Below, piece by piece: positions 18,410 through 35,359 of a stretch of DNA of 61,462 bases (positions within the stretch are counted from its first letter, which is position 1; each line of letters opens with the position of its first letter). The position numbers were made by a program, and so were the translations under genes. The DNA comes from Oscillospiraceae bacterium (GTDB lineage Bacteria; Bacillota; Clostridia; Oscillospirales; Oscillospiraceae), in assembly GCA_017416685.1 (NCBI GenBank), contig JAFQBN010000028.1, positions 1 through 61,462 of the forward strand, written 5' to 3'. The notes under the pieces are model-generated. The model saw only the letters and a list, made by a program, of their open reading frames with translations, was not told the DNA's origin and made no database searches.

Positions 18410-18420
18410 AGAGTTCAGAC

Positions 18421-18462
18421 ATCAATAACCAGAAATAAGTACCGAAAAAACAGTGAAATGAG
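18421..18462 (+). repeat. 42-nt dispersed repeat, copy 1
   Basis: 38 of 42 bases match 43156-43197. Both copies sit directly upstream of a hairpin in a non-coding gap. Core shared: AGAAATAAGTACCGAAAAAA. Confidence 0.75.
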
Positions 18463-18503
18463 AAATAAATATCCCCCCGCTATGCGGGGGGATATTTATT
18501 TCT
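18461..18503. terminator. Perfect 20-bp stem terminator
   Basis: 18461-18480 pairs without mismatch with 18484-18503 around a TAT loop. The arms are A/T-rich at the base and C6/G6 near the tip, so it can work on both strands. It follows the ceramidase-like gene. Confidence 0.8.
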
Positions 18504-18525
18504 GTACACAGACGGAAACGGCGAC

Positions 18526-18554
18526 TGGATTTTTTGCGCTACCTGCGTTATAAT
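18526..18554 (+). promoter_or_regulatory. Possible promoter of the AraC-NagA-GH20 operon
   Basis: TATAAT at 18549-18554 with TGGATT 17 bases upstream, leaving a 110-base leader. A second TATAAT (18642-18647) lies close to the start codon with a poorly spaced TTGTGG (18616-18621). Confidence 0.45.
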
Positions 18555-18667
18555 GCGGCTGGACGAAAAAAGGCACGATTTTGGGACATAATTTGTAAAA
18601 ATCTGACCCACCACATTGTGGAAGAGGTGGGGGTGGCAATTTATAATAAAAGCAGAGGTGGAACGAC

Positions 18668-19531
18668 GTGGAATTGATTGATCCGATTATGGAATTTGGC
18701 CTGCAGCTGGGACGAGAAAGCCTGCAGGTGGATATTGATGCAAGCCCCCACACCATTGCGAATATGTGGGGCAGCGGCACCCACAACCATCCCAAGTTCG
18801 AGGTGCACATCCTGCTCAGCGGCAACTGCAGTATCGACATGGAAGGAACCGGTTACAAGCTGCGGGCGCGGCAGGCGGTGGTGGTGGCCCCGGGCCAGTA
18901 CCATCGGCTGGAACTGGGTGCGGGGGAGATAGAGCGGTTGTCCATGGGTCTGACCGTGCCCAATGGACCCCTGCGCCGGGCCATGCAGGCGGCGGTGGAG
19001 CAGACCAGTATCTACGTCGTGACCGACGAAATCATGCAGTTGTGCCGCGGCGTTTTGGAAGAGAGCCGGCGGCTTGAACCCTTCCGCCGGGAAATGATGC
19101 AGGCCAAGGTGTCCACGCTGGTGCTGGCAATTTTGCGGACCATGAATTTGCAGGGCGATGTGAATGGCCTGGACAAGGAAGGCAGGCGCATGCCCTCCGC
19201 CATCGATATGTATTTCGAACGCAATCTGGCCCAAAATCCCAGCGCGGAGGACCTGGCGCAGCAACTGCACATGTCCCGCCGGCACCTGAACCGCATCCTG
19301 CAGGCCAACTACGGCATGGGATTCCGGGAAAAACTGTTGCAGGCGCGGCTGGAACGGGCCAAGTGGCTGTTGCGGCACACGGAAAACTCGGTCAGCGTTA
19401 TCGCCGGCGACGTGGGGTACACCTACGACTCCGCCTTTCGCGAAGCCTTTTATCGACAGGTGGGCATGACGCCCCAGGCCTATCGGTTGAACCATAAGAA
19501 AATAAATGTACAGGAGGAAGCGGGCAAATGA
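18668..19531 (+). CDS. AraC-family regulator of the hexosaminide operon
   Basis: A 287-residue AraC-type activator. The N-terminal cupin has the metal/ligand-type HNHPKFEVHILLSG and VVVAPGQYHRLE. The C-terminal domain has the helix-turn-helix pair (SAEDLAQQLHMSRRHLNRIL and VSVIAGDVGYTYDSAFREAF) and ends GMTPQAYR. The start is GTG 18668 with AGAGGTGG upstream. Its stop overlaps the start of the NagA-like gene by one base pair of codons (ATGA), so it is co-translated with the deacetylase it probably regulates. Confidence 0.92.
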   Translation: MELIDPIMEFGLQLGRESLQVDIDASPHTIANMWGSGTHNHPKFEVHILLSGNCSIDMEGTGYKLRARQAVVVAPGQYHRLELGAGEIERLSMGLTVPNGPLRRAMQAAVEQTSIYVVTDEIMQLCRGVLEESRRLEPFRREMMQAKVSTLVLAILRTMNLQGDVNGLDKEGRRMPSAIDMYFERNLAQNPSAEDLAQQLHMSRRHLNRILQANYGMGFREKLLQARLERAKWLLRHTENSVSVIAGDVGYTYDSAFREAFYRQVGMTPQAYRLNHKKINVQEEAGK

Positions 19532-20670
19532 AAGGGATTATCCATGCGGAACTGGTCATGCGTGACCATCTGATTCCCGATGCGGTTATCTTTATGGAGG
19601 ACGGCATCATCACCGGCTACGGCGAGATGCGCAACACCCCCATCCCCGAGGGATGCGAGGTGATTGACGTTGCGGGTGCCTATGTCGGCCCCGGTCTGGT
19701 GGATATCCACACCCACGCCGGTGACGATGTGACCATCAGCGACGAGCCCTACACCCCCTGTACCGCCCACCTGAAGGCGGGCACCACCACCTTGTTGGCG
19801 GCGCTGTATTTCAGCTCTACCAAGGAACAGCTGGTGGAGCAAGCCGCCCGTGTGCGGGCCGCCATCGGCCAGCCGGGTGCGGAGAACCTGACCGGCTTTT
19901 ACATGGAGGCGCCCTACATGAACCCCAAGTTCGGCGCCGATCGCTCCAACAACCCCTGGAACCACCCGGTGTGCAAGGCGGACTATCAGCCGGTCATCGA
20001 TGCGGTGGGGGACAAGGCCTTTGTGTGGGCACTGGCTCCGGAGCGGGAGAATATTTTGGACTTTGTCAAGGATGCCAAGGCAGCTAACCCTGCCGTCCGC
20101 TTCGCTGTGGGTCACTCCGAGGCGGAACCCTACCAAATTGAGGCGCTGATGCCCTACGGGCTGTGCTTGGGCACCCACCACACCAACGCCACGGGCACCA
20201 TCGTGAAGTATCCCGAGTGCCGGGGGGTGTGCGTGGATGAAACGGTCAGCTACAACCACGATATTTACGCGGAGCTTATCTGCGACAGCGTGGGAATTCA
20301 TGTGGACCCCTATATGCTGCGGCTGGTACGGAAAATCAAGGGGGACGACCGCGTTATCCTCATCTCCGACCAGTGCGCCGGCGTGGCGCCTGCTCCTGCG
20401 GGGTACGAGCACGTCCACGACATCAACTTTGACTTTGAGGGCGAGATCTACGGCTCCCGCCTGACACTGAATGTGGCCTGCCGCAACATGATGAAGCACA
20501 CCGGTGCCTCTATCGTGGACGTGTTTCGCTTTGCAAGCTATAATCCCGCCCGGGCCGTGGGCCTTCTGGACCGAGGAGAGATCGCTGTGGGTAAACGGGC
20601 CGACCTGCTTGTGTGCGACCACAAGATGAATGTGAAAACCGTGTTCCTTGCCGGCAAGGAAATGGATTGA
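19528..20670 (+). CDS. nagA: NagA-like N-acetylglucosamine-6-phosphate deacetylase (amidohydrolase)
   Basis: A 380-residue amidohydrolase-superfamily TIM barrel. NagA removes acetate from GlcNAc-6-phosphate in amino-sugar catabolism. Visible: PGLVDIHTHAGDD (metal HxH), the metal-glutamate loop FYMEAPYMNPKFG, HSEAEP, GTHHTNA and the catalytic-aspartate stretch ISDQCAG, then a C-terminal strand GEIAVGKRADLLVCDH. AGGAGG precedes the ATG, which overlaps the preceding stop. The downstream GH20-like gene, 16 bases away, would supply N-acetylhexosamine. GTHHTNA and the loop differ from E. coli NagA, so the true substrate may be another N-acetylated sugar. Confidence 0.82.
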   Translation: MKGIIHAELVMRDHLIPDAVIFMEDGIITGYGEMRNTPIPEGCEVIDVAGAYVGPGLVDIHTHAGDDVTISDEPYTPCTAHLKAGTTTLLAALYFSSTKEQLVEQAARVRAAIGQPGAENLTGFYMEAPYMNPKFGADRSNNPWNHPVCKADYQPVIDAVGDKAFVWALAPERENILDFVKDAKAANPAVRFAVGHSEAEPYQIEALMPYGLCLGTHHTNATGTIVKYPECRGVCVDETVSYNHDIYAELICDSVGIHVDPYMLRLVRKIKGDDRVILISDQCAGVAPAPAGYEHVHDINFDFEGEIYGSRLTLNVACRNMMKHTGASIVDVFRFASYNPARAVGLLDRGEIAVGKRADLLVCDHKMNVKTVFLAGKEMD

Positions 20671-20686
20671 TAGGAGGCAAACAAAG

Positions 20687-22852
20687 ATGACTGCAAAGAA
20701 CCTGCAAAAGAAGATTTTTCCCCTGCCCAAACAGGTGGAAGTGAGCGACAGCACCCTGAAGCTGGACAAGGTGGCCCTGAAGATCACCGCCGATGTTCAT
20801 ACCGCCAAGCAGGCCGCCGCCGTGATTGAGAAAAAGCTGGCCGCCCTCGGTATCGCCGTGTGCGATTGCGCCAAGACCACCATTACCTTGGCACTGGGCG
20901 ACGCTCCTGCCCAGGTGCAGTTTGCCGAGCAGGGCTACCGCATCGCCGTTACCGCCGATGGCGTGGAGTTGACCGGCTTCGGTGCTCAGGGCGTGTACTA
21001 CGCAGCGGTGTCCTTCGTGCAGATTTTGGACAAGGAGATTCCTTGTTGTAATATTTTGGACTGGCCGGATATGGCCTTCCGTGGCCATGTAATCGAGAGC
21101 CGTCTGGGCAGCGACCTGATGGAGAAAGAGGACTGGTTCGCCATGATCGACGATCTGGCCGGCCAGAAAATCAACCACCTGCAGGTCAACGTGTACGGCT
21201 GCTGGCTGGTGCAGTACGACGGGCGAGTCAGCGAGTATCTGTACGTCCCCATCGACGGCTATCCCGAGCTGAAGACCCCCTTCCACCTGAAGTATTACTC
21301 CCCTGCCAAGGGCGAGTGGGTGGAGAGCGACAAGCTACCCCCCATGTTTGAGAAGAACTTCTTTGGCGAACTGGTGGCCTACGGCTACGAGCGGGGCGTG
21401 AAGGTGTTCCCCGGCTTCAACTCCTATGGCCACAACACCCTCATCCCCCACACGTATCCCGAACTGTCTGCCAAGGACGAGGAGGGCAATCCCAGCTACT
21501 CCGGCTTCTGCACCTCCAACCCTGATGTGTACAAGCTGCTGTTTGCTGCCTATGACCAGCTGATTGACAAATATATGAAGCCCTATGGCTCCGATTGCAT
21601 CGCCCTACAGCTGGACGAGGTGTGGGCAGAAATCGGCCAGTACGCCGGCGACATTTTCAGCAAGCGTTCCCCTTGGTGCAAGTGCCCCAAATGTAAGGAC
21701 TTGAACGAGGGTCTGCTTTTCGTGGAGCACACCGTGCGCCTGGTCAAGCACCTGAAGGAGAAGGGCATGAAGCGGGTGTTCATCTGCTGCGATATGCTCA
21801 TCGACCACGGCCCCAATGGAGTGGGCGTGCTGACCGAGCCGCTGCTGGCCGCCCTGAAGCGAGAGGATGTGTTTGACACCGTCACCATCACCTGGTGGAC
21901 CTACGCCGACCTGTGGGAGAAGCTGATGTTCCACACCACCCAGCCGGAGACCGGCCTGCACCGGGTCACCTCCCCTTGGAACGGCTATTACCACTGGTGC
22001 TGCCAGACCAACTCCACCCGTGACATCTACATGCTGGCCAAGATGGCCAAGGAGGAAAACTGCGACGGTATGCATTCCTACTCCGCCTATGACCGCTGCT
22101 TCGACCGCAGCCACCACCTGCTGGCGGAACTGAGCTGGAGCTACGACCAGGCCGGCGGGATTCAGGACGTGACGGACCGCTACCTGCAGCAGAACTTCCC
22201 CACCCAATACGAGGCGGCCCGCAAGGCGTTCCGCCTGTTCGACCTCATCACCGAGGAGCGCATCGACCAGCCCGAGGGCAACTCCTCTTGCCTTGCCAAT
22301 TATTTCATGCTCCGTGACCGGCTGAGCTACTACTTCTACTCCTACGTAGCGGCCGGTAAGCCCTATCCCCGTGTGTTCCCCGGCGAGGCGCTGGAGAAGG
22401 TCTGCGCCCGTCGCGAGGACCACCTGCGTGCCATGCTGTCCATCTCCGGTATGGCCAAGGAGGCCAAGGCCATTTGGGAGCAGATTGCCGCCGACCCCGC
22501 CTGTAATCAGGAAATGGCCCGCCGTTACGCGTACGAGGCGGATAACTACATGGTGCTGGTGGACGATTATCTTGCCATGCTGCGCATGATGGAGCTGGCC
22601 GGGGACGGCGAGTATGACGCCGTAAAAGCCATGGCCGAGGAGCGCCGTGACACCCGCATCGCCCTGATGCGCCGCCACGAACAGGTGAAGGACAGCTATC
22701 AGCAGCCTTGGAACCTGCGTAACCACAGCATCTTTATGCAGTTCTTTGAGGACCTGCGCAACTACCTTGATACCACCCCTGCCGACAAGGTGGAGCTGAA
22801 CTTCTTCGATATGCGCCACTTTGCCTCCGAGCGATTTATGTGGCTGCGCTGA
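20687..22852 (+). CDS. GH20-like beta-N-acetylhexosaminidase
   Basis: A 721-residue protein with no signal peptide, so probably intracellular. Residues about 8-115 match the non-catalytic GH20b-type alpha/beta domain (LPKQVEVSDSTLK..., GYRIAVTADGVELTGFGAQGVYYA). The following TIM barrel begins DWPDMAFRGHVIESRL, as in GH20 enzymes. The expected Asp-Glu pair that acts in substrate-assisted catalysis is in IALQLDEVWAE (D310-E311). A CX2C pair (CKCPKCK) follows. The C-terminal 250 residues are helical. The ATG at 20687 is set by AGGAGG. It shares an operon with the NagA-like gene. The barrel motifs diverge from textbook GH20, so a new subfamily or a GH84/GH123-like specificity is possible. Confidence 0.75.
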   Translation: MTAKNLQKKIFPLPKQVEVSDSTLKLDKVALKITADVHTAKQAAAVIEKKLAALGIAVCDCAKTTITLALGDAPAQVQFAEQGYRIAVTADGVELTGFGAQGVYYAAVSFVQILDKEIPCCNILDWPDMAFRGHVIESRLGSDLMEKEDWFAMIDDLAGQKINHLQVNVYGCWLVQYDGRVSEYLYVPIDGYPELKTPFHLKYYSPAKGEWVESDKLPPMFEKNFFGELVAYGYERGVKVFPGFNSYGHNTLIPHTYPELSAKDEEGNPSYSGFCTSNPDVYKLLFAAYDQLIDKYMKPYGSDCIALQLDEVWAEIGQYAGDIFSKRSPWCKCPKCKDLNEGLLFVEHTVRLVKHLKEKGMKRVFICCDMLIDHGPNGVGVLTEPLLAALKREDVFDTVTITWWTYADLWEKLMFHTTQPETGLHRVTSPWNGYYHWCCQTNSTRDIYMLAKMAKEENCDGMHSYSAYDRCFDRSHHLLAELSWSYDQAGGIQDVTDRYLQQNFPTQYEAARKAFRLFDLITEERIDQPEGNSSCLANYFMLRDRLSYYFYSYVAAGKPYPRVFPGEALEKVCARREDHLRAMLSISGMAKEAKAIWEQIAADPACNQEMARRYAYEADNYMVLVDDYLAMLRMMELAGDGEYDAVKAMAEERRDTRIALMRRHEQVKDSYQQPWNLRNHSIFMQFFEDLRNYLDTTPADKVELNFFDMRHFASERFMWLR

Positions 22853-22974
22853 CAGAATAAGGGGACGATGGGAATGGGGAAACGGCAAGATAGCGTTGCC
22901 CGTTTGGACGTCGCACCACATCCGGATACGATGCCGAAGGAGTTCATTCCCATCTGCCGCCGCAGATAACAAAC

Positions 22975-23008
22975 AAAAAGCACCCGACAACAAGTCGGGT
23001 GCTTTTTT
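22975..23008. terminator. Bidirectional terminator
   Basis: A 13-bp stem (22976-22988 with 22994-23006) with A and T tails serves the GH20-like gene (+) and the convergent AraC gene (-), whose stop codon abuts it. Confidence 0.85.
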
Positions 23009-23009
23009 G

Positions 23010-23855
23010 TTACGGCTCAATGGTTCGGTGTGCGGCAAACTCGTTTTCTCTGGAGGGGCTGCGCCCAAAATAGGCGGTATAGTTGCGGAAGAAGGTCGCG
23101 TAGTCACTGAAGCCGCAGGAGGAGAAGACGGTGCTGGGCTTTTCTCCCATCCGAATCAGCTTCTGTGCCTTGGCAAGCCGGCGAATGTTGATGAATTTCT
23201 TGGGCGTTATCTGCAAGTGTTCCGTGAACAGATGGTGCAGATGACTTTTGTTGACGCACAAGTGCCGGCAGATTTCGTCGATGGTGATTGGGTCGCAGTA
23301 GTGCCGGGCGATGTATTGCAGGGCATCCCTCAACGTGGGGTGCATAGACGATATGGGCTCACCGTCAAAATCGTCGGGCCGAATGAGGTATATGTGGAAC
23401 AAAATTTCCTCAATGGTGTTTTGAAGCAGAAGAGCCAGATCCTCGCCCTGAAAGTGTTCACAGTAAAAGTCCAGCTTTTCAAACAGACCCAAGATGGAAC
23501 TGTTGCCGTTGCAATCAATAAAATGCAGGGACTTTGGAATGCGGTCGAAGACCCGGTTGCCCACAACGGTTTCGTCAAAGAGGATGTTGTAACGCTCGTA
23601 ATCGCTGTCGGAGTCAAACATCATTTTGTGCGGAATGTTTGCCCGGAATATGACGAGATTGTTCTTGCCGAGCTTATAAATCTGCTCGCCGATCATCGCG
23701 GAAACGCTGCCGGCTTTTACGAGGATAAGCTCGCACACGTCGTGAACGTGGAAGGTGGATTGGATATTTTTCAGGGGGGTGGAGATGGTGGCGTGGCCGC
23801 AGTATATGACGTTATTCCGGTAGGTGAAGTGCCGGGTGAAGGCGGTTTGTTTCAA
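23010..23855 (-). CDS. AraC-family regulator
   Basis: A 281-residue regulator divergent from two Gfo/Idh genes. The cupin half contains FHVHDVCELILVKAGS and NLVIFRANIPHKM. The DNA-binding half contains ITIDEICRHLCVNKSHLHHLF and PSTVFSSCGFSDYATFFRNY, then FGRSPSREN. I place the start at the TTG of 23855, eight bases after AGGAG; longer in-frame versions (to 23909) begin with weak codons and no ribosome site. It lies under a near-consensus promoter. The target is probably the divergent oxidoreductase pair. Confidence 0.9.
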   Translation of the reverse strand: MKQTAFTRHFTYRNNVIYCGHATISTPLKNIQSTFHVHDVCELILVKAGSVSAMIGEQIYKLGKNNLVIFRANIPHKMMFDSDSDYERYNILFDETVVGNRVFDRIPKSLHFIDCNGNSSILGLFEKLDFYCEHFQGEDLALLLQNTIEEILFHIYLIRPDDFDGEPISSMHPTLRDALQYIARHYCDPITIDEICRHLCVNKSHLHHLFTEHLQITPKKFINIRRLAKAQKLIRMGEKPSTVFSSCGFSDYATFFRNYTAYFGRSPSRENEFAAHRTIEP

Positions 23856-23889
23856 CGGTAACACTCCTCTTTGTATGACGGGTACTGCC

Positions 23890-23918
23890 ATTGTACAGCA
23901 AAAACACATTTATTGCAA
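23890..23918 (-). promoter_or_regulatory. Promoter of the AraC gene at 23010-23855
   Basis: TTGCAA (complement of 23913-23918), 17 bases, TACAAT (complement of 23890-23895), 35 bases before the chosen start. Confidence 0.75.
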
Positions 23919-26007: not shown

Positions 26008-26049
26008 AGCCCACACATTTTGCTATTTTACTAACAAAATGTGTGGGCT
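26008..26049. terminator. 15-bp inverted repeat after the Gfo/Idh pair
   Basis: AGCCCACACATTTTG (26008-26022) pairs with 26035-26049 around a 12-base loop, followed by an AT-rich tail (ATAATTATTGTTATAAT) rather than a pure T run. It is a probable terminator; it could also fold in the leader of the 22-codon ORF downstream. Confidence 0.6.
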
Positions 26050-26110
26050 ATAATTATTGTTATAATATGTGTGAGAATATGTCACTTCAGCGAAAAGGAT
26101 GGTGCAACCG

Positions 26111-26257: not shown

Positions 26258-26286
26258 TTGACAACAAAGGAAAAAAGTGCTACCGT
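26258..26286 (+). promoter_or_regulatory. Possible promoter of the pilus locus
   Basis: Perfect TTGACA (26258-26263) with 17 bases to TACCGT (26281-26286), a weak -10, 55 bases before the signal-peptidase-like gene. Confidence 0.45.
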
Positions 26287-26340
26287 AGGATGGGATTTCG
26301 CATTTTTATGTATACCACATTTTGGGGAGGTGAGGGCAAT

Positions 26341-26856
26341 ATGAAAACGCTTATTTCAACAAAGGGGAAGCGCGTCCTGCCCAGCCCTCCCTACGGGAAA
26401 ATTGTCCTGCGGCTGGCTGCGGTGCTGTTGGCTGTGGTTTTGCTGCTGGCCAACCTGTTCACCCATGTGTTTATGGTCGTCCGGTATTACGGGGACGGAA
26501 TGGACCCCTCCCTTTCCGACCGTCAGCTGCTTGTGCTGCTGAAAACAGACAAGGTACAGTCGGGCGATATTATTGCATTCTACTACAACAACAAGGTGCT
26601 GGTGCGCCGGGTGATCTGCGAGGGCGGCCACAGCATCTCGCTGGAGGAGAACGGGACCGTCACCATTGACGGCACGGTTCTTTCCGAGCCGTATGTACAG
26701 ACCTCCTCCATTGGTCAGCACAACATTTCCTTCCCTTATCACGTACCCTACGGACATTATTTTGTTATGGGGGACAACCGTTCCATTTCCATGGACAGCC
26801 GTCTTTCCGAAATCGGAACTGTTCCAGCAGACCGTATACTGGGGAAGGTCCTTTGA
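26341..26856 (+). CDS. Signal peptidase I homologue lacking the catalytic dyad (SipA-like pilus assembly factor)
   Basis: A 171-residue membrane protein of the S26 signal-peptidase fold: one N-terminal transmembrane helix (about residues 22-45) and an extracellular domain. The box that should read G-D-S-M-x-P reads GDGMDP, so the nucleophilic serine is glycine (residue 53). The box that should carry the general-base lysine (K-R-V/I) reads VRRVI, so lysine is arginine (residue 89). The structural box MGDNRSISMDSR is intact. GGGGAGGTGA precedes ATG 26341. Streptococcal pilus islands contain SipA proteins with the same kind of losses that act as assembly chaperones, so I infer that role here and not peptide cleavage. 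Confidence 0.85.
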   Translation: MKTLISTKGKRVLPSPPYGKIVLRLAAVLLAVVLLLANLFTHVFMVVRYYGDGMDPSLSDRQLLVLLKTDKVQSGDIIAFYYNNKVLVRRVICEGGHSISLEENGTVTIDGTVLSEPYVQTSSIGQHNISFPYHVPYGHYFVMGDNRSISMDSRLSEIGTVPADRILGKVL

Positions 26857-26880: not shown

Positions 26881-26904
26881 ACAAGTCAGGGGTCCCTGAC
26901 TTGT
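26881..26904 (+). promoter_or_regulatory. First of two abutting hairpins ahead of the tip pilin gene
   Basis: An 11-bp perfect stem (26881-26891 with 26894-26904). Its last three bases also belong to the next hairpin, so the two compete at the junction. Confidence 0.6.
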
Positions 26905-26923
26905 GCTCTATTTATAGAGCACA
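26902..26923 (+). promoter_or_regulatory. Second hairpin ahead of the tip pilin gene
   Basis: TGTGCTCTA (26902-26910), TTTA loop, then 26915-26923 pairs perfectly. A TATACT string (26925-26930) follows directly. No long T run, so it looks more like an mRNA-processing, attenuation or stabilising structure than a simple terminator. Confidence 0.55.
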
Positions 26924-26947
26924 ATATACTTTGACGAAACAAAGAAG

Positions 26948-29900
26948 ATGAAGCACGTGAAAACCATTGGTTTGCGACCGCACAATCGAATATGGATCGC
27001 TGCCGGGGTTGTTGTTTTCCTGCTGCTTTCTCTGCTGCCCCTGCGCGGTGGCATGGTCAGTGCGGTGGCACTGGAGCAATCGGCGCGCTGTGGTATGACA
27101 GAACATACACACGATTCAGCCTGCTACACCGGAAGTCGGCTGACATGTATTCAGCCCCAGCATACGCACACAGAAAACTGTTATCTTGTCCTGCTCCGGG
27201 ACAATGACATCAACAATCTGCTGGCTCGGGTGGATGCGGATACGAGCAATAATCTGGAAACCGTGATCACCCACACGGTGACCACAGCCGAAAAACTCCG
27301 CGCCGATGCTTCCCCTCCCACGGGAACGGTTGATTCCAACTCCGGTGTGCAGGCGGTCTTACTGAGCAACACGACCGTGCAGGCAGAGGACCCCGAAACG
27401 GTCACAACACCGGATATCCCCGCACAGTTGGATGTGTCTGCACTGAACGAAAGTATCGCGGAAAACAACATAGAATCCGGGTTGGTGCTGAACGAAAACC
27501 TGTATAAGGCATCCACCCTCGCTTCCGGCCCCGGTGATTTGGCTTTGCCGACGGATACCTCCGCTTTGCTTGCCGCAGGATCGGACAGCGGAGTATCTAC
27601 ACTGGCCGTGGGCGACAATGCCAGCACAGGAAACTACAACGCCAACTTCTATGTCTATCTGGACAACCGGTGGACCTGCTTCGGCAAGCTGACCTTTACC
27701 ACCTCCGGCTCAAGCTGGCGGCAAACCGTCCGACTGGATACCGGCGATGCGGTGGATTTGATTAATGACAATCTGGGGACCGACTATAGCTGGAGCGAAC
27801 TGAATTTGCAGTGGGCCGACTCTCAAAATCCAAGTATATGGAACGACATTACCATCTCCCGGACCACGATGACCTTCCGCAACGGCAACAGCAACTATTT
27901 CACCGCCAATTCCGCACGCAGTGCCAAGTACGTGTTCCTGATGGACGACTCCGGCGACCCGCTGCCGTTCTATACCGTCACCTTTGAATATCCGGACGGT
28001 TCCTCCGACACGCAATACGTTCCCGGCGGCAGCTCCGTCACTCTTTCGGGCGACTACGTTTGGAGCGACGGAAGCGCCCAATACACCGGCGGTCAGTCTG
28101 TGACCATCAACGGGCCAAAGACCTTTACCGCCAGTGAAGATAGCGGGACCCTGCGTATCGTTTACAACATTGGTTTCCCAACGGTGAGCGGCGTAACGGT
28201 GTCCACCAGACCCACCATCTACGGTACCACCGCTACCACGTTGACCGATACGGTGGATGAAAACGGTTCTGCGCTTATCCGCAATGTCTCTCAGCACGAG
28301 GTGCCGGGCAAGCTGTCCGACGGCAACACCCGCATCATCCGGTTCTCCGGCTGGCGGGTGGGCACTTCGGACACCATCCTCAGCCCCAACTCCACCCTGA
28401 ACTGGGACGAGCTGCAATCCTTTGCCAGCGGCAGCCGGCTCAATCTCACCGCCGTGTGGGAGACCTCGCCCCTGCAAACGGTCAGCTTTTTTGTCCGCTA
28501 TGACTCCAAGCCCATCGACACCCAGGGCGGCGGCGTGGTGGGCGGTGCGGTCACCGACTACACCCCCGAACTGTTTGCCACCCACGTGGGCGGTACGGAT
28601 GCGGCATCCCTGTCCGTGAACGAACTGAACAACAAATATTACATCGCCGATACGACTACAGATAACTCCTTCGGTGCCGACCAGCGCATTCGCGCCCTGT
28701 ACGGTGAGCAGCCGGGAATTTGGCTGCAAAGCTTCCCGGACGACGAGGAGATTTTCCAAAAGCTGATCACCCATGCTCAAAACCGCCAGCTTGAAGTGGA
28801 TGGCGAGCCGGTGGCGCCGGAAGATCTGCACGCGGAGGCCTATGCCATCCGCTGGTATGTGTTCAAGGCCCAGAGCGATGCCTGGCACATCGATGGTCGT
28901 TTGGTGAAAAAACAGGGCATCGTCTATGTGAAAAAGTCCTTTGCGGGAAATATGGACGGTGTTGCGCTGGCCAAGGAGGACTTCTCCATTACCGCGGCCA
29001 ATGGGGCCGGAACCAAGCAGCACACTCTGACGCTGAACAACGCCGCCGGCTATGATCCGGCTGCCGACACCTATACCTGGGAAGTGAACGGTCTGGACTA
29101 TGGCGAACCATGGACGCTCACCGAACACACCTACAATGAGGTGAATAACCCGGGCGGAATCAATTATCACGGCTATTCCGAATACATCGTCGTGGATGCA
29201 TTCAATCAGCAGAATAAAAACGGTCCGGGTACTACGGTGGACATTGTCGGTCAAACCTATGCACTGGATGCAGGTACCGACCAGATCATGCGCGTGGAGT
29301 TCACCAATGTGTACCACACCAGCGACTCCATCATCATCAAAAAGGAAGATGCCCGCACCGGAAATCCGCTGGCGGGAGCCACGTTCCAGCTGCTGCAGAA
29401 CGAACTGCCCCTGACCTTTACTTATGATAGTGCAAAGAACCAATACATCTATGACACACAGGGCAGTATAACGGAGCTATCCGGCTCTACTACCGGCTAT
29501 TACGAACTGGTCATTTCCGGTTTCAGCTACGACACCGGTAATGTGGTGGTGCAGGAGCTGCGGCCGCCTTCCGGCTATACTCCCATCGAAAACATCACCA
29601 TCGGCTATCTGCCCGACCCCGACACAGGCCAGCAGACAGACCAAATCGGAATTTTGAGCACTTCGCCTCTGGCATCCTACCATGACGGCCTGCTCATTAT
29701 TGAGAACACCACGGAGAATACCTCCGTCACCGTGTCCAAGCAATGGTTGTGTCCCGAGGCCGATTGGGCCGATGTGACCGTGCAGCTGCTGGCCAATGGA
29801 CAGCTGGTCTCTTCCCTGATCCCCGGCGTGGAGCCCACGGTGCAGCTGACGGCGGCCAACGGCTACCGGGCTACATGGAGCGGCTTGCCCGCCTATGCCA

Positions 29901-30550
29901 ACGGCACATCCATTACATGGTCCGTGCGGGAGACGAAGATTGGCACAGAGAACTGCAAGCCGGACTTCACCTTCGCCAACTGGCTGGTAAGCTACTCCGA
30001 CCCGACCTATACCAGGGACGGCAGCGGAAAGGTAACGAACACCGCCTTTACCATCCAGAACGATACCCGGCGTACCCTGCTGCGTCTGACAAAAACCAAT
30101 CTATCCGGCACTCTGCGGCTGCCCGGGGCTACATTCACCCTGCAGCATCTCATCCCGGATGGAAACGGAGGGTACACCATCGACTCTACCTTCGTTACCC
30201 GTACCGCCACCACCGGCTCAGACGGCACGCTGACCTTTGATAACCTGCTTTACGGCTATTATCGGTTGACCGAGACCGCCGCTCCCGAAGACTACAAGCG
30301 GCTGGTGGATCCCATCTATCTGACCATCCATGAGGATGGCTCGGTGGTGGTGGACGATCATGCCTTTGCTCAATCGAGTAATGTAGCTTACAGCATCCTT
30401 GTCCGCAACCAGGCCTCCGGTGTCCCCTTGCCCGAGACCGGCGGCAGCGGACCGGGCGGATATTACATGCTTGGCGCTTTGCTGATGCTCGGTGCCATGT
30501 GTGCTTATATAATCCTCATCCTGAAAAAAAGGAGGGGGAGTTCCGCCTGA
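26948..30550 (+). CDS. Large LPETG-anchored Cna-B/SpaA-type pilin (likely tip or adhesin)
   Basis: A 1200-residue secreted protein with an N-terminal hydrophobic export segment (about residues 15-35). Next is a Cys/His module (EHTHDSACYTGS... and QHTHTENCY, about 55-80). A long adhesin-like central part has repeat-type beta domains. SpaA/Cna-B domains include KKEDARTGNPLAGATFQLL and LPGATFTLQHL, with the isopeptide-glutamate motif LTETAAPEDY. The C-terminus is a sortase signal: LPETGG, a hydrophobic helix and KKRRGSSA. The ribosome site is weak (AAAGAAG next to the ATG), which would keep synthesis low, as expected for a tip subunit. It is the first pilin of the locus. Confidence 0.9.
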   Translation: MKHVKTIGLRPHNRIWIAAGVVVFLLLSLLPLRGGMVSAVALEQSARCGMTEHTHDSACYTGSRLTCIQPQHTHTENCYLVLLRDNDINNLLARVDADTSNNLETVITHTVTTAEKLRADASPPTGTVDSNSGVQAVLLSNTTVQAEDPETVTTPDIPAQLDVSALNESIAENNIESGLVLNENLYKASTLASGPGDLALPTDTSALLAAGSDSGVSTLAVGDNASTGNYNANFYVYLDNRWTCFGKLTFTTSGSSWRQTVRLDTGDAVDLINDNLGTDYSWSELNLQWADSQNPSIWNDITISRTTMTFRNGNSNYFTANSARSAKYVFLMDDSGDPLPFYTVTFEYPDGSSDTQYVPGGSSVTLSGDYVWSDGSAQYTGGQSVTINGPKTFTASEDSGTLRIVYNIGFPTVSGVTVSTRPTIYGTTATTLTDTVDENGSALIRNVSQHEVPGKLSDGNTRIIRFSGWRVGTSDTILSPNSTLNWDELQSFASGSRLNLTAVWETSPLQTVSFFVRYDSKPIDTQGGGVVGGAVTDYTPELFATHVGGTDAASLSVNELNNKYYIADTTTDNSFGADQRIRALYGEQPGIWLQSFPDDEEIFQKLITHAQNRQLEVDGEPVAPEDLHAEAYAIRWYVFKAQSDAWHIDGRLVKKQGIVYVKKSFAGNMDGVALAKEDFSITAANGAGTKQHTLTLNNAAGYDPAADTYTWEVNGLDYGEPWTLTEHTYNEVNNPGGINYHGYSEYIVVDAFNQQNKNGPGTTVDIVGQTYALDAGTDQIMRVEFTNVYHTSDSIIIKKEDARTGNPLAGATFQLLQNELPLTFTYDSAKNQYIYDTQGSITELSGSTTGYYELVISGFSYDTGNVVVQELRPPSGYTPIENITIGYLPDPDTGQQTDQIGILSTSPLASYHDGLLIIENTTENTSVTVSKQWLCPEADWADVTVQLLANGQLVSSLIPGVEPTVQLTAANGYRATWSGLPAYANGTSITWSVRETKIGTENCKPDFTFANWLVSYSDPTYTRDGSGKVTNTAFTIQNDTRRTLLRLTKTNLSGTLRLPGATFTLQHLIPDGNGGYTIDSTFVTRTATTGSDGTLTFDNLLYGYYRLTETAAPEDYKRLVDPIYLTIHEDGSVVVDDHAFAQSSNVAYSILVRNQASGVPLPETGGSGPGGYYMLGALLMLGAMCAYIILILKKRRGSSA

Positions 30551-30602: not shown

Positions 30603-32195
30603 ATGAAAATGACAAAGAGAATCCTCAGCGCTCTGCTGGCCACCCTGCTGCTGGCCGCCATGACCATCCTCCCCGCAAGTGCCGCGGGACACACCATCCG
30701 CATCGCCAACGAGGCTGCCGGCCACACCTACGAGGTGTACCAGATCTTCTCCGGCGTTCTGAATGAAAAGGGCATCATGACCGAGATTCAGTGGGGCTCC
30801 AGTGTCAGCGCTGCCGGACGGGCAGCTATGGGCGTGGCTGAGACCAAGGCCGGCACCCTGAAGACCGTGGCCGATGCCGAAGCCTTTGGCTATGAGGTCG
30901 ACAACTATCTGGAAACCCCCGTTAAAACCGTGAATACGCAGACCACTCTGAGCAATGGACAGAAGGTCTATGAGATCACCGACCTGGACACCGGCTACTA
31001 TCTGATCATGGACAAGAGCGGCAGCCTGTCCGGCGATGCTCACGATGCCTATACCCAGTACATCATTCAGGTGGTCGACAACGTGGAAGTCAGCCCCAAG
31101 AGTGCTGTTCCCACCCTGCTCAAGCGCGTCAGTCTGCAGCAGAAGACCAACTACGCCAGCGCCGTCAGCTCCATGATCGGCGGTGAGGTGTACTATCAGC
31201 TGATCGCCTCTATGCATTCCCACATCAGCACCTATCCCGAGTATTACCTGCAGTTCAGCGACACCCTGCCTGCCGGCTTGAAGGATGCCGAGGTTGTCAG
31301 CGTGGGCGTGGCCAACGGCGAGAACTACGCCGAACAGGAACCCGTACCTGCCGAGCACTACACCTTTGCCTATGACAGTGCCGCCAATACCGTCACCGTC
31401 ACCATGAAGGATGCCAAGGCCGCCATTAAGGTCGCCACCGGCGAGGAGGCCCTGATCGACGACAAGATCGTTGTCACTTACAAGGCCGTTTTGGATCCCG
31501 ACGCGGTTGTGGGCCGCACTCCCACCGACGGTAACGTGAACACCGCTGTTCTGTTCTACTCCAACGACCCCAACGAGGATTATGACCCTGTTGCTGACGA
31601 GAAGCCCGAACACGTGGGCAAAACCGCTCAGGCTGAGGCCACCGTATACACCTATCAGATCCGTATCAAGAAGATCGATGCTTCTGACGACACCAAGGTG
31701 CTGCCCGGCGCTCAGTTTATCGCCTATCGCTACACCGGCACCAACACCAAGGCATACTATCAGGTCGATACGGCTACCGGCAAAGTGACCGGTCTGGTGG
31801 CGGATGAGAGTCAGGCGACCAGACTGACCACCGATGCCGACGGTATGCTGTCCATCATCGGTCTGCCCTCCGGCACCCACCACTTCAAGGAAGTGGTTGC
31901 CCCCAGCGGCTACAATGTGCTGACCACCGAGATCTCCGTGATCATCACCGCCGCCGCCGACGCCACCACCGGCAAGCTGGACACCTTTAAGGGTGAGGCC
32001 ACCGGTACCGCCCGTCCCGTTATCGTGGATATGGAGAAGGGCGACCTGCTGGTCACTGTGGAGAACCGCATTGGTTCCACCCTGCCCGAGACCGGCGGCA
32101 TCGGCACCACCATCTTCTATGTGGCCGGTATCGTTCTGATGCTGGGTGCTGTGGCCGTGATCGTGGCCAAGAAGCGCTCCGGCGAAACCAAGTAA
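30603..32195 (+). CDS. Major pilin, LPETG-anchored isopeptide-forming fimbrial subunit
   Basis: A 530-residue backbone pilin. Signal peptide about residues 1-28 (KRILSALLATLLLAAM..., SAAG). The segment VDNVEVSPKS holds a lysine where backbone pilins carry their pilin-motif lysine that sortase C joins to the next LPXTG threonine. The E-box-like FKEVVAPSGYNV is near 430. The C-terminus is LPETGGIG, a membrane helix and KKRSGETK. AAGGAG stands well placed before the ATG, a much better ribosome site than that of the tip pilin. The gene is followed by an intercistronic GC hairpin, which fits high expression relative to the sortase. Confidence 0.93.
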   Translation: MKMTKRILSALLATLLLAAMTILPASAAGHTIRIANEAAGHTYEVYQIFSGVLNEKGIMTEIQWGSSVSAAGRAAMGVAETKAGTLKTVADAEAFGYEVDNYLETPVKTVNTQTTLSNGQKVYEITDLDTGYYLIMDKSGSLSGDAHDAYTQYIIQVVDNVEVSPKSAVPTLLKRVSLQQKTNYASAVSSMIGGEVYYQLIASMHSHISTYPEYYLQFSDTLPAGLKDAEVVSVGVANGENYAEQEPVPAEHYTFAYDSAANTVTVTMKDAKAAIKVATGEEALIDDKIVVTYKAVLDPDAVVGRTPTDGNVNTAVLFYSNDPNEDYDPVADEKPEHVGKTAQAEATVYTYQIRIKKIDASDDTKVLPGAQFIAYRYTGTNTKAYYQVDTATGKVTGLVADESQATRLTTDADGMLSIIGLPSGTHHFKEVVAPSGYNVLTTEISVIITAAADATTGKLDTFKGEATGTARPVIVDMEKGDLLVTVENRIGSTLPETGGIGTTIFYVAGIVLMLGAVAVIVAKKRSGETK

Positions 32196-32260: not shown

Positions 32261-33121
32261 ATGAAACGAAAGAAAAAGAATAAAGGGACCGACGTCCTGC
32301 TTATTTTGATTTTTCTTGCAGGGCTGTCCTTGCTGCTCTACCCCGTGGTCAGCAACTTCTGGAACGCACGGGTCCAATCCAATGCCATTGCCGATTACGC
32401 TCAGGCGGTCGACAACAGCGACCGGACACAGGCCGAGCAGATGCTGGCAGCGGCCAGAAGCTATAATGATTCCCTGTTGTCCCGGGACGGAACCGTTGAC
32501 ATGGACGAAACCTGGCAAGCAGAATATTCCGAGCTTTTGAATGTGGCCGGCACGGGTATTATGGGCTATGTGGACGTCCCCTGTATCAACTGCAAACTGC
32601 CCATCTACCACGGAACGGACGAATCGGTGCTGCAGGTGGCGGTGGGCCATCTGGAGTGGACCAGTCTGCCCGTAGGTGGTTCAAGTACTCACGCGGTCAT
32701 TTCCGGCCACCGTGGTCTGCCATCGGCAGAACTGTTGACTCATATTGACCGGCTGGAGACCGGCGACAGGTTTTATATTCACGTTTTGGGCGAGGCGCTG
32801 GAGTACCGCGTGGATGACATCGCCGTTGTACTGCCCAACGACACTTCCCGCCTACGGGTGGTGGCCGGGGAGGACTATGTGACCCTCGTCACCTGCACGC
32901 CTTACGGCATCAACTCCCACCGTCTGCTGGTGAGGGGTACTCGTGTGCAAAACAGCGCTGGTGCAACTTCCGAGCAGTTGTATCTTACCAATGAATTGCG
33001 TCCCGTCAGTCTGGTGTACGTGATCCCGCTGACCCTTGTTGGTCTTGGCGCGATCACCGGCCTGTTCCTTGGAGTGCGCAGCATCTTGTCACGTAAATGG
33101 CAAAGAAAGACCGGCAATTGA
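32261..33121 (+). CDS. Class C sortase (pilus polymerase)
   Basis: A 286-residue membrane transpeptidase that joins pilin subunits. It has an N-terminal transmembrane helix (about 10-32) and a second C-terminal one (about 248-270), the class C topology. Catalytic residues: His150 in ISGHRGLPSA, Cys212 in LVTCTPYGIN and Arg221 in SHRLLVRG. The region before the core (about 88-100, SRDGTVDMDETW) lies where class C sortases carry a DPW/DPF lid; a clear Asp-Pro is missing, so the lid may be altered. AAGGAGAG precedes the ATG. Confidence 0.93.
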   Translation: MKRKKKNKGTDVLLILIFLAGLSLLLYPVVSNFWNARVQSNAIADYAQAVDNSDRTQAEQMLAAARSYNDSLLSRDGTVDMDETWQAEYSELLNVAGTGIMGYVDVPCINCKLPIYHGTDESVLQVAVGHLEWTSLPVGGSSTHAVISGHRGLPSAELLTHIDRLETGDRFYIHVLGEALEYRVDDIAVVLPNDTSRLRVVAGEDYVTLVTCTPYGINSHRLLVRGTRVQNSAGATSEQLYLTNELRPVSLVYVIPLTLVGLGAITGLFLGVRSILSRKWQRKTGN

Positions 33122-33137: not shown

Positions 33138-34763
33138 ATGAGAAACCTTATGCGAAAATGGAATAGAGTGCTGCTGTGCGTGCTGGTGTCTTGTATGCTG
33201 CTTGGGACTGCGGTGGTGCAGGCGGCCAACCCCTGCGCTTTGCGGGTCACCATACGCAACGATGCGGACGAGCCGATCTCCGGCATCAATGTAGACCTGT
33301 ATCAGGTGGCAGTTACAAAGAACGGTGTCACCACGTTGAACGAGCGGTTTGCCGGTCTTTCTCTGAGCGCGGACCAACTGCTTGCCGACAGTGGTGCGGA
33401 CAATGCCAACATCGTCTACCAGTATGTCTTTGCTCAGGAAGTGGAGTATACCGCCAAGCATACTACCAACGCCAATGGCAACGCGGAATTTAACAATCTG
33501 GAGCAAGGCATTTATCTGGTGCTGGATGAAGGCGGACAAAAAGTGGCCTTCCAACCCTATCTGGTCGTCCTCCCCATGACCGTGGACGGGCAAGTGAGCT
33601 ATTACGTGGCCTCCAGTCCCAAGACTTCTGAAACGGACACAAAATCCTTTCTTGTGGTTATGTTGTGGGAAGACAACATGAATGCGGCAGGTAAACGCCC
33701 CCGCAGTGTAGAGGTGACCCTGCTGCGGGACGATATCCCGGTTCGCAAGGTAACGCTCAGCGCCGACAACAGCTGGCAGCATCAGTTCTATCAACTGCCC
33801 ACCGGCGGAGAATATTCGGTGAAGATCGACCCAATTTCGCAGTACAGCACCTCTTATGACCTGCGGGGAGACTCCTGCATCATCCTGAACAAGTACACCG
33901 GTGGCGGTGGCGGAGGCGGCGGTGGTACGAACCCCGACCCTCCCACACCGCCCACACCGGAAAAAGGCCATGTCAGCGTGTACAAAATTTGGGACGATAA
34001 CAGCGATGCTGCCGGTACGCGTCCCGAACAAGTTACTGTTCAGCTGATTCGGGCGGGAACGGTGGAGAAAACTGCCGCTCTCTCTTCAGCCAACAGCTGG
34101 AGTTATACTTTCTACGAGCTGGATCCGCTGGCGAGTTATACGGTTCGGGAAGTTTCTGTTCCCGGTTATACCCCCGATTATCGCGGCAATGCCGCCACCG
34201 GTATTACCATTACCAACCGCAGCGATACCAAACCCGAACCCCCCGACCAACCAATCAATCCCGATCCCCCCGGCCCAGTGGAGCCTGTTCCCGAAACCAT
34301 TGATATTCCTGTCGTTGTCGTGTGGCGTGGTGATGAAAACCACCCGCAGGCCCGCCCGGAGCAGGTGACGGTCCATTTAATCTCCTCCGGCAACATTGTT
34401 TCCACCCTCGATTTGACCGCCGCTGACGGCTGGCAAGGCGTGTTTGCCGATATTCCCGCCGATCTTGCCTACAGCATCTGGCAGCTGTCGGTAGATGGTT
34501 ATTCTACCGCTTACGAAGGCAGTGCATCACAGGGGTTCACCGTAATCAACACTTACCGAAGCCAGACACCCTCCGATCCGCCCGCACCTCCCCAGCCCCC
34601 GGATTCGCCACCTTATGAACCTTCCGTTCCTGTAAAACCCTCCCAGCCTACCATTCCTCAGACCGGTGTGCAGTTATGGCCTCTTTGGCTGTTGCTGGTG
34701 GCCGGTGTACTGCTGATAGCGTTGGGCCTTGCAGACCTGTACTTGGGGAGGAAAAAATCATGA
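33138..34763 (+). CDS. Minor/basal pilin with Cna-B domains and an IPQTG anchor
   Basis: A 541-residue secreted Cna-B protein. Signal peptide about 1-30 (VLLCVLVSCMLLGTAVVQAA). An N-terminal pilin domain is followed by three Cna-B-type repeats, each opening with a W(D/R/E)D-type strand (VMLWEDNMNAAGKRP, VYKIWDDNSDAAGTRP, VVVWRGDENHPQARP). Linkers are a nine-glycine run and proline-rich stretches; the second is PPAPPQPPDSPPYEPS before the anchor. The sorting signal is IPQTG, not LPETG, followed by a helix and RKKS. The different motif suggests recognition by the neighbouring second sortase, with a basal role in attachment to the wall. AGGAGAG precedes ATG 33138. The stop overlaps the next start (ATGA). 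Confidence 0.9.
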   Translation: MRNLMRKWNRVLLCVLVSCMLLGTAVVQAANPCALRVTIRNDADEPISGINVDLYQVAVTKNGVTTLNERFAGLSLSADQLLADSGADNANIVYQYVFAQEVEYTAKHTTNANGNAEFNNLEQGIYLVLDEGGQKVAFQPYLVVLPMTVDGQVSYYVASSPKTSETDTKSFLVVMLWEDNMNAAGKRPRSVEVTLLRDDIPVRKVTLSADNSWQHQFYQLPTGGEYSVKIDPISQYSTSYDLRGDSCIILNKYTGGGGGGGGGTNPDPPTPPTPEKGHVSVYKIWDDNSDAAGTRPEQVTVQLIRAGTVEKTAALSSANSWSYTFYELDPLASYTVREVSVPGYTPDYRGNAATGITITNRSDTKPEPPDQPINPDPPGPVEPVPETIDIPVVVVWRGDENHPQARPEQVTVHLISSGNIVSTLDLTAADGWQGVFADIPADLAYSIWQLSVDGYSTAYEGSASQGFTVINTYRSQTPSDPPAPPQPPDSPPYEPSVPVKPSQPTIPQTGVQLWPLWLLLVAGVLLIALGLADLYLGRKKS

Positions 34764-35359
34764 AGCAGATCCGTGCTGCCGCATTGATCCTTTTGGGCCT
34801 GTCTATGATCCTTGCCTCGGCCTATTTATTCTCTCGGTACGAGCAGGAGGCCGAAACAGCGGGCGAAAACGCGCAGCAACTGCTGGCAGCCCTAACCGAG
34901 GAAATCGAGAAAAACAAGGAGCAGAACCTGTATGACACGGCAGTGCAGGAGCAGTCCATCGGCCAAATGCTCCAAACATCACTGCAGGGCTATGACCTTG
35001 TAGGCATCATCCGTGTTCCCAGTATGGGTGTGGAACTGCCCGTGCTGAACGATTGGAACTACGACCTGCTGAAACTGTCCCCCTGCCGCTACTCCGGCAG
35101 CATAGAGGGGCAGAATCTGATCCTGATGGGCCATAACTACAAAAAGCATTTTGCGCCTCTGCGCCGGGTGTCGTCCGGTGATCGGGTGGAATTTTTGGAT
35201 GTTAACGGAACCTCGCACGCCTATGTGGTCGCTGAAACGGAAGTCTTAAAACCCACACAGCTGGATGAGTTGTCCTCTTCGGAACACAGCCTGACGATCT
35301 TCACCTGTACCTCCGGCGGTCAAAGCCGTTTTGTGGTTCGGTGCGATCCGGCCGAGTGA
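34760..35359 (+). CDS. Second sortase of the pilus locus
   Basis: A 199-residue sortase with one N-terminal membrane helix (about 5-25), then an acidic helical stretch and the beta-barrel core. Catalytic residues: His125 in LMGHNYKKHF, Cys183 in IFTCTSGGQ and Arg190 in QSRFVVRC. There is no C-terminal membrane helix, so it is not class C; the GHN and short size fit class B/D-like or housekeeping types, not settled here. Its start overlaps the stop of the IPQTG pilin, so the pair is co-translated and this enzyme probably handles that pilin or anchors the finished pilus. Confidence 0.88.
   Translation: MKQIRAAALILLGLSMILASAYLFSRYEQEAETAGENAQQLLAALTEEIEKNKEQNLYDTAVQEQSIGQMLQTSLQGYDLVGIIRVPSMGVELPVLNDWNYDLLKLSPCRYSGSIEGQNLILMGHNYKKHFAPLRRVSSGDRVEFLDVNGTSHAYVVAETEVLKPTQLDELSSSEHSLTIFTCTSGGQSRFVVRCDPAE

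What the first reader, a model, noticed from the sequence alone, without database searches (positions are those of the whole stretch)
26341..26856. Signal peptidase in the pilus operon has lost both catalytic residues
The box that normally carries the serine reads GDGMDP (Gly53), and the box that normally carries the lysine reads VRRVI (Arg89), while the structural GDNR...DSR box is intact. Selective loss of the dyad with fold preservation, right beside pilins and sortases, argues for a chaperone or assembly role. SipA of streptococcal pilus islands is a known parallel; a clostridial counterpart with a Gly/Arg dyad seems little described.
Basis: partly seen in the sequence, partly recalled or inferred. 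Interest (0 to 1): 0.72.

Follow-up and report, generated by a model that had tools for sequence, protein, structure and literature searches.

The report
Dead signal peptidase in pilus operon
A protease-like protein in a gut bacterium's pilus operon has lost both catalytic residues yet stays highly conserved, which suggests it now helps build the pilus rather than cutting proteins.

Summary
Confirmed: 26341-26856 encodes a 171-aa S26 (signal peptidase I) protein with Gly53 at the Ser position and Arg89 at the Lys position. Not an error: codons 53 and 89 are 2 and 3 substitutions from Ser and Lys, and three more species of the genus carry the same pair. Not decay: dN/dS is 0.08 against two of them, lowest in the operon in those comparisons. 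Of 228 distinct pilus-type sequences 205 keep Ser/Lys; 15 form one strongly supported Arg-type clade (9 Ser/Arg, 6 Gly/Arg). All 15 lie upstream of one tip-adhesin family, not detected downstream of 193 Ser/Lys and 8 other altered genes. Streptococcal SipA, the known dead pilus peptidase, groups apart, with relatives beside class B sortases; this operon has class C. Common origin with SipA was allowed by thinner trees (AU p 0.77, 0.127) and rejected by the fullest (p 0.015). Best reading: a second, probably convergent, non-catalytic pilus-assembly factor, likely serving the tip pilin.

The parts
26258..26286 (+). possible promoter TTGACA-N17-TACCGT upstream of sip
   Evidence: Read by eye; the same in G310, only the first hexamer kept in G312. 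The consensus scan did not list it and listed others, e.g. 26027-26054.
26324..26336 (+). ribosome-binding site GGGGAGGTGAGGG, supports the start codon at 26341
   Evidence: conserved in G310 and G312
26341..26856 (+). sip: S26 signal-peptidase-like protein without catalytic dyad (Gly53/Arg89), 171 aa; hydrophobic N-terminal segment about residues 23-46 (by eye)
26497..26499 (+). codon 53, GGA (Gly) at the nucleophile Ser position
26605..26607 (+). codon 89, CGC (Arg) at the general-base Lys position
26881..26924 (+). two adjacent palindromes between sip and tip
   Evidence: nearly identical in G310 and G312, not in G309; as terminators no more than chance (2 found, shuffles 1.7)
26948..30550 (+). 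tip pilin/adhesin, 1200 aa, LPETG anchor; family linked to the Arg-type sip clade
   Evidence: the tip role is inferred from size, position and domains
30603..32195 (+). backbone pilin, 530 aa (GramPos_pilinBB, RrgB_K2N_iso_D2, LPETG)
32261..33121 (+). class C sortase
   Evidence: NF033745 272 bits, cut-off 160
33138..34763 (+). Cna_B pilin with IPQTG anchor, probably the basal pilin
   Evidence: role inferred
34760..35359 (+). second sortase; Pfam sortase, below every NCBIfam cut-off

Best explanation
Sip is a membrane-anchored pseudo-signal peptidase: an S26 domain outside the membrane that can no longer cleave, kept as a dedicated pilus-assembly factor. Most likely it binds the exported tip pilin encoded by the next gene (its N-terminal or signal-peptide region, in or near the old substrate cleft) and presents it to the class C sortase so that the tip starts the fibre; the housekeeping Ser/Lys peptidase removes the signal peptides. 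It probably descends from a Ser/Lys enzyme like those common in clostridial pilus operons: Lys became Arg first, later Ser became Gly in some branches. Shown: residue loss, an Arg-type clade, selection, operon and tip linkage. Inferred: lack of activity, order of the losses, binding partner, assembly role.
For: No nucleophile or general base at the catalytic columns. Purifying selection: dN/dS 0.076 (window-G310) and 0.082 (window-G312), against 0.11-0.29 for tip, both sortases and the Cna_B pilin and 0.55-0.65 for the backbone in the same two pairs. Gly and Arg unchanged across four species down to 60% identity. Arg-type clade 100/100 with 15 rows, 100/98 with 12 of them. Tip family (at least 80 bits) downstream of 15 of 15 Arg-type, 0 of 193 Ser/Lys and 0 of 8 other altered genes. 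The backbone is only 41% and 37% identical in the two closest species where sip is 96% and 93%, so sip does not track backbone sequence. The genome keeps a Ser/Lys enzyme elsewhere. Precedent: SipA lacks the dyad, is essential for pilus polymerisation, and one SipA allele supports backbone but not tip (Cpa) incorporation of another pilus type (PMC4049620; abstract, passages, part 1 of the Discussion).
Against: No expression, deletion or binding data. In the third pair, G310-G312, sip (0.153) is not the lowest dN/dS: the Cna_B pilin is 0.118 and the second sortase 0.152. Tip linkage may simply reflect one operon passed on whole: sip and tip identities correlate at r 0.948 over 45 pairs, as shared descent alone would give. 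Deleting the Ser/Lys homologue sipF of S. suis only reduced polymers (PMC2797073, passages), so such proteins can be dispensable. SipA bound neither pilin nor peptides in vitro. Tyr49 in all 15 may narrow the old substrate cleft, which would argue against signal-peptide binding there.
Confidence: 0.58

Rival explanations
1. It is a true SipA: the same lineage as the streptococcal factor, inherited or transferred, with one ancient loss of the catalytic Lys.
For: SipA is the best single-sequence structure match. In the first tree (3 SipA-type rows) the arrangement joining SipA type and Arg clade scored 16.7 log units higher than the free search, p-AU 0.77. With 7 SipA-type rows the union is 9.85 lower, p-AU 0.127.
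Against: With seven further rows the union is 30.06 lower, p-AU 0.0154. SipA type is its own clade at 100/100 and 99/97, Arg type at 100/98 in both. Spacing DSR-x4-G in 15 of 15 Arg-clade and 202 of 205 Ser/Lys sequences, DSR-x2-G in 7 of 7 SipA-type rows. Arg-clade and Ser/Lys profiles match SipA equally, 52.3 and 52.9 bits. Class B sortases at 6 of 6 SipA-type loci, class C here.
Confidence: 0.15
2. It acts as a substrate-protecting decoy: it shields the tip pilin's signal peptide from the housekeeping peptidase until folding or sortase docking, a regulatory rather than scaffold role.
For: Retained S26 boxes; Arg-clade tips share a short [AS]VALEQ motif after the hydrophobic segment in 14 of 15 (L193 differs).
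Against: Nothing here separates binding-to-protect from binding-to-present; Tyr49 may block the cleft.
Confidence: 0.12
3. A different chemistry replaces the dyad, so the protein still cuts something.
For: Nine of 15 Arg-clade members keep the Ser; Arg as general base is conceivable for those.
Against: The window's protein lacks the Ser; outside the S26 motifs I saw no invariant Ser, Thr, Cys or Asp close to the site in the clade's columns. In SipA the replacing Asp and a nearby Lys were dispensable.
Confidence: 0.05
4. It is a decaying remnant of a pilus peptidase.
For: Two catalytic residues are lost.
Against: dN/dS 0.08-0.15; same Gly/Arg in four species; intact reading frame and ribosome-binding site.
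Confidence: 0.02

Closest known systems
SipA/LepA of Streptococcus pyogenes FCT pili (4n31, 4k8w)
   Same: S26 fold family, in a pilus operon, both catalytic residues replaced (Asp48/Gly85 in SipA), anchored extracytoplasmic domain
   Different: Replacement residues; [quoted passage not shown] class C instead of class B sortase; separate clade
Ser/Lys signal peptidases of clostridial pilus operons (and S. suis SipF)
   Same: Closest sequences outside the Arg clade, often the same operon position, class C sortase
   Different: They keep Ser and Lys; other tip proteins; mostly Ile/Val at position 49
LepB2 of Actinomyces oris (citation and title seen only; paper not held)
   Same: A type I signal peptidase required for pilus assembly, by its title
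   Different: Recalled, not read, as a catalytically active enzyme
Clostridium perfringens VR-10B pilus locus (PMC8088525, passages)
   Same: Clostridial pilus locus with a signal peptidase gene
   Different: Class B sortase; dyad state not given in the passages seen

Membership tests
Type I signal peptidase (S26A), active enzyme | S26 domain with boxes B-E | tested here: met
   PF10502 94 bits, TIGR02227 97.9 bits
Type I signal peptidase (S26A), active enzyme | Ser nucleophile and Lys general base | tested here: not met
   Gly53 and Arg89
SipA (streptococcal pilus-assembly factor) | S26 protein without the Ser-Lys dyad | tested here: met
   fold inferred from sequence, no model could be made
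SipA (streptococcal pilus-assembly factor) | encoded in a sortase pilus operon | tested here: met
SipA (streptococcal pilus-assembly factor) | operon polymerised by a class B sortase | tested here: not met
   class C, NF033745 272 bits; 6 of 6 SipA-type loci have class B
SipA (streptococcal pilus-assembly factor) | one clade with SipA | tested here: inconclusive
   p-AU 0.77, 0.127, 0.0154 with rising sampling; only one streptococcal row
SipA (streptococcal pilus-assembly factor) | required for pilus polymerisation | not testable with these tools
   needs a deletion experiment
Clostridial pilus-operon S26 group | groups with Ser/Lys pilus peptidases to the exclusion of housekeeping ones | tested here: inconclusive
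   96/91, but unresolved against both
Clostridial pilus-operon S26 group | catalytic Ser/Lys | tested here: not met
   205 of 228 distinct sequences keep both, this one neither

The most novel reading that the evidence does not exclude
A second, independently evolved family of dead signal peptidases serves sortase pili. It arose from active, class-C-sortase-linked pilus peptidases by Lys-to-Arg and then Ser loss, became locked to one tip-adhesin family, spread between families of gut Clostridia as a unit, and acts as the tip's assembly factor. Dead pilus peptidases would then not be a peculiarity of class B sortase pili, as the published discussion of SipA suggests.
Probability: 0.4. Interest if true: 0.65.

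Novelty: new variant of a known kind. Interest (0 to 1): 0.5.

Why it matters
How SipA helps build pili is still described as unknown, and it is discussed as a companion of class B sortases. A separate dead lineage with class C sortases, with Ser/Lys and Gly/Arg forms within one genus, Ser/Arg forms in related families and a fixed tip partner, gives natural comparisons to ask what the fold does when it cannot cut, and points to the tip pilin as the client to test.

Tried and rejected
Sequencing error: rejected. Pseudogene decay: rejected. Single origin of all altered dyads: not a simple story, since 8 of the 23 altered distinct sequences fall outside the Arg clade (L053, L194, L195, L251, L096, L182, L054, L134); the explicit test holding all Arg rows together did not finish. 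One or two losses of Ser inside the Arg clade: unresolved (Gly/Arg as one clade p-AU 0.535, 0.224). A clean switch in tip signal motif between Ser/Lys and Arg loci: only partly borne out. Many Ser/Lys tips end in a LILPAIT-like motif, but 75 of 205 matched my loose pattern, 103 did not, 12 were too short and 15 had no adjacent long ORF, so I do not build on it. The pattern missed SVALEQ variants; the 14 of 15 count is from reading its printed rows. The first tree was poorly searched: constrained trees scored higher, hence larger SipA-type sampling and, on re-checking this report, a tree with seven more rows, which rejects the union with SipA but leaves the Arg clade unresolved between pilus and housekeeping enzymes; I lowered the SipA rival from 0.2 to 0.15 for that. 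More relatives of L256 in its family: only its own genome, 1 of 10.

Structure prediction, and thus fold search, could not be run, so statements on fold and cleft rest on sequence; the E. coli equivalences that make Tyr49 a cleft position and Ser150 a box-E active-site Ser are recalled.

Full report
What is there. The ORF at 26341-26856 (+) codes for 171 residues and starts behind a strong ribosome-binding site. It is an S26 protein (PF10502 94 bits; TIGR02227 97.9 bits) with a hydrophobic N-terminal segment. The serine box reads G51-D52-G53-M54 and the lysine box V88-R89-R90-V91-I92; G144-D145-N146-R147 and D152-S153-R154 are kept. Among solved structures the first matches are S. pyogenes SipA/LepA (4n31 E 1.7e-11, 4k8w 6.1e-11), ahead of signal peptidases proper (4wvh, 4.2e-9). 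The gene heads an operon: 1200-aa tip pilin, backbone pilin, class C sortase (272 bits, cut-off 160), Cna_B pilin with IPQTG, and a second sortase that reaches no NCBIfam cut-off. The genome (1.86 Mb, 98.9% complete) has one other S26 match, with Ser and Lys.

Not an error and not decay. Within the genus 62 of 64 genomes match at E 1e-12 or better, by score mostly the housekeeping type; 11 have a match at 1e-30 or better. Four of these 11 are Gly/Arg: the window's, G310 (96% identity), G312 (93%) and G309 (60%), with the same codons GGA and CGC. The other seven are Ser/Lys (G323). GGA is two substitutions from Ser and CGC three from Lys. Nei-Gojobori dN/dS for sip is 0.076 (window-G310), 0.082 (window-G312) and 0.153 (G310-G312). 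In the first two pairs sip is lowest: tip 0.164 and 0.187, class C sortase 0.220 and 0.285, Cna_B pilin 0.146 and 0.114, second sortase 0.133 and 0.220, backbone 0.547 and 0.648. In the third it is not: Cna_B pilin 0.118 and second sortase 0.152 are lower. Against G309 the sip synonymous sites are saturated, so no ratio is given. By protein identity sip is the most conserved of the six genes against each of the three species.

Survey. The 254 loci held at that point gave 255 rows of at least 150 bits to a profile of alignment A1, 228 of them distinct, the window's included; six lower-scoring distinct rows (five housekeeping, one fragment) were set aside. A rescan of 285 loci gave the same 228; loci L286-L301, fetched later, are not in it. 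Of 228: Ser/Lys 205, Ser/Arg 10, Gly/Arg 6, Ala/Arg 2, and one each of Ser/Ser, Gly/Lys, Ala/Lys, Thr/Lys, Tyr/Arg. The loci were fetched by similarity to the window, so this is not a frequency in nature. In a 67-row tree (all 23 altered rows, 31 Ser/Lys representatives, 5 housekeeping, 8 SipA or other peptidases) fifteen altered rows, 9 Ser/Arg and 6 Gly/Arg, form one clade at 100/100 with a stem of 0.55. Some lie on short contigs (G582 3.1 kb, G490 6.6 kb, G787 8.7 kb) where mis-binning is possible; others lie on long ones (G367 160 kb, G501 87 kb, G538 29 kb). Arg is fixed in 15 of 15 and Ser kept in 9 of 15, so Lys-to-Arg most simply came first. In the clade Tyr49 is fixed where Ser/Lys proteins have Ile in 147 and Val in 50 of 205, and the box-E Ser (position 150, kept in the window) is Ala in 11 of 15; Asn38 in the hydrophobic segment is also fixed.

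Tip linkage. The window's tip family (residues 1-900, at least 80 bits, within up to 8 kb downstream) is found behind 15 of 15 Arg-clade genes, 0 of 193 Ser/Lys genes with at least 1.2 kb downstream (205 less 12 too short; highest 55.5 bits) and 0 of 8 other altered genes. Many stretches were shorter than 8 kb: 98 of the 205 Ser/Lys and 7 of the 15 Arg-clade genes had about 8 kb. A relative of the window's class C sortase lies near 70 of those 98, 7 of those 7, and 6 of the 6 other altered genes with 8 kb. Sip and tip identities correlate at 0.948 over 45 pairs of ten loci (L035, whose tip frame appears interrupted, was left out), which shared descent alone would also produce. The backbone is far less constant: 41% and 37% identity in G310 and G312, so sip does not track backbone sequence.

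Is it SipA? A phylum search with a SipA segment found 106 of 398 genomes with a match at 1e-8; of the 20 loci fetched 17 are Ser/Lys. The closest, with those, are SipA-type proteins with varied dyads: Thr/Arg, Ser/Arg, Ser/Gly, Asp/Ser, Gly/Ala and Asp/Gly. With seven SipA-type rows (one streptococcal) and 12 of the 15 Arg rows the tree separates SipA type (100/100) from the Arg clade (100/98), which joins Ser/Lys pilus peptidases at 96/91. Holding SipA type and Arg clade together costs 9.85 log units, p-AU 0.127; in the thinner tree the union scored 16.7 better, p 0.77. Adding seven more rows (L294, L292, L287, L053, L195, L194, L251) the union is 30.06 lower, p-AU 0.0154, but the Arg clade is then unresolved between pilus and housekeeping enzymes. 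So separate origin from SipA is favoured more strongly than descent from the pilus peptidases in particular. The DSR-to-G spacing is four in 15 of 15 Arg-clade and 202 of 205 Ser/Lys sequences and two in 7 of 7 SipA-type rows; of nine housekeeping rows two have four, four have two and three did not match. Profiles of the Arg clade and of Ser/Lys proteins score SipA alike (52.3 and 52.9 bits), while the match to signal peptidase IB falls from 70 to 52.6.

Sortase class. Both sortases of L275 and one of two in L276 pass the class B cut-off, the other (142.5 bits) falls just short; L296-L299 have relatives of these class B sortases and no match to the window's class C one. That makes 6 of 6 SipA-type loci. 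Two more loci fetched with them do not count: L300 (Ser/Lys, no sortase match in 7.4 kb) and L301 (L294, Ser/Arg, a class C relative about 5.7 kb away). The two SipA-type loci read gene by gene keep the order tip, sip, backbone, sortase. Here the sortase is class C and sip is first.

Published background. SipA has Asp48/Gly85, no detectable activity, and is essential for pilus polymerisation in L. lactis; mutating Asp and the nearby Lys had no effect, and FCT3 SipA replaced FCT2 SipA for backbone and base but not for the tip Cpa. The same paper notes that Gram-positive genomes encode other S26-like proteins without an identifiable dyad (PMC4049620: abstract, passages, part 1 of the Discussion). 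[quoted passage not shown] S. suis SipF keeps the dyad and its deletion only reduced polymers (PMC2797073, passages). Of eight library searches, seven were about pilus signal peptidases or SipA; in the titles and abstract openings listed I saw no report of a dyad-less pilus peptidase outside streptococci. That covers an open-licence library only.

Reading. The simplest account is a dedicated pilus peptidase that lost catalysis, while the housekeeping enzyme processes the pilins, and was kept for a non-cutting job most likely directed at its neighbour, the tip pilin. Loss, selection, clade and linkage are shown; inactivity, partner and assembly role are inferred.

Noticed in passing
window 26881-26924: Two back-to-back palindromes (10-bp stems, 4-nt loops) between sip and tip, nearly identical in G310 and G312; G309 has a different short palindrome there. 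Possibly an attenuator or RNA-processing site that sets sip against pilin expression; no Rfam family matched.
   Followed up: partly
window 30603-32195: The backbone pilin is only 37-41% identical to those of G310 and G312, whose other pilus proteins are 76-96% identical to the window's, suggesting allele exchange or strong diversification of the shaft.
   Followed up: partly
L255, L256, L289, L290, L291, L295 and their loci L275, L276, L296-L299: SipA-type proteins with scattered dyad changes (Thr/Arg, Ser/Arg, Ser/Gly, Asp/Ser, Gly/Ala, Asp/Gly) beside class B sortases, five of six in the window's class: a non-streptococcal SipA group.
   Followed up: partly
L294 in L301: A further Ser/Arg S26 protein with a class C sortase relative 5.7 kb away; its place in the tree is unresolved.
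   Followed up: partly
tip proteins of many Ser/Lys pilus loci (e.g. L044, L089, L046): A recurrent signal-sequence ending 'TYALILPAIT' (or close to it) directly before a Cys-His-rich repeat; it may be a dedicated signal for the pilus peptidase.
   Followed up: partly
L053, L195, L194, L251, L096, L182, L054, L134: Eight pilus-type S26 proteins outside the Arg clade with other dyad changes, so change of the dyad seems to have happened repeatedly. For L195 and L251 no class C sortase was seen in the sequence held.
   Followed up: partly
window 17039-23909: Upstream of the pilus operon, by my reading of the translations only, an amidohydrolase resembling N-acetylglucosamine-6-phosphate deacetylase, a hexosaminidase-like protein and AraC-type regulators, i.e. 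amino-sugar use.
   Followed up: no
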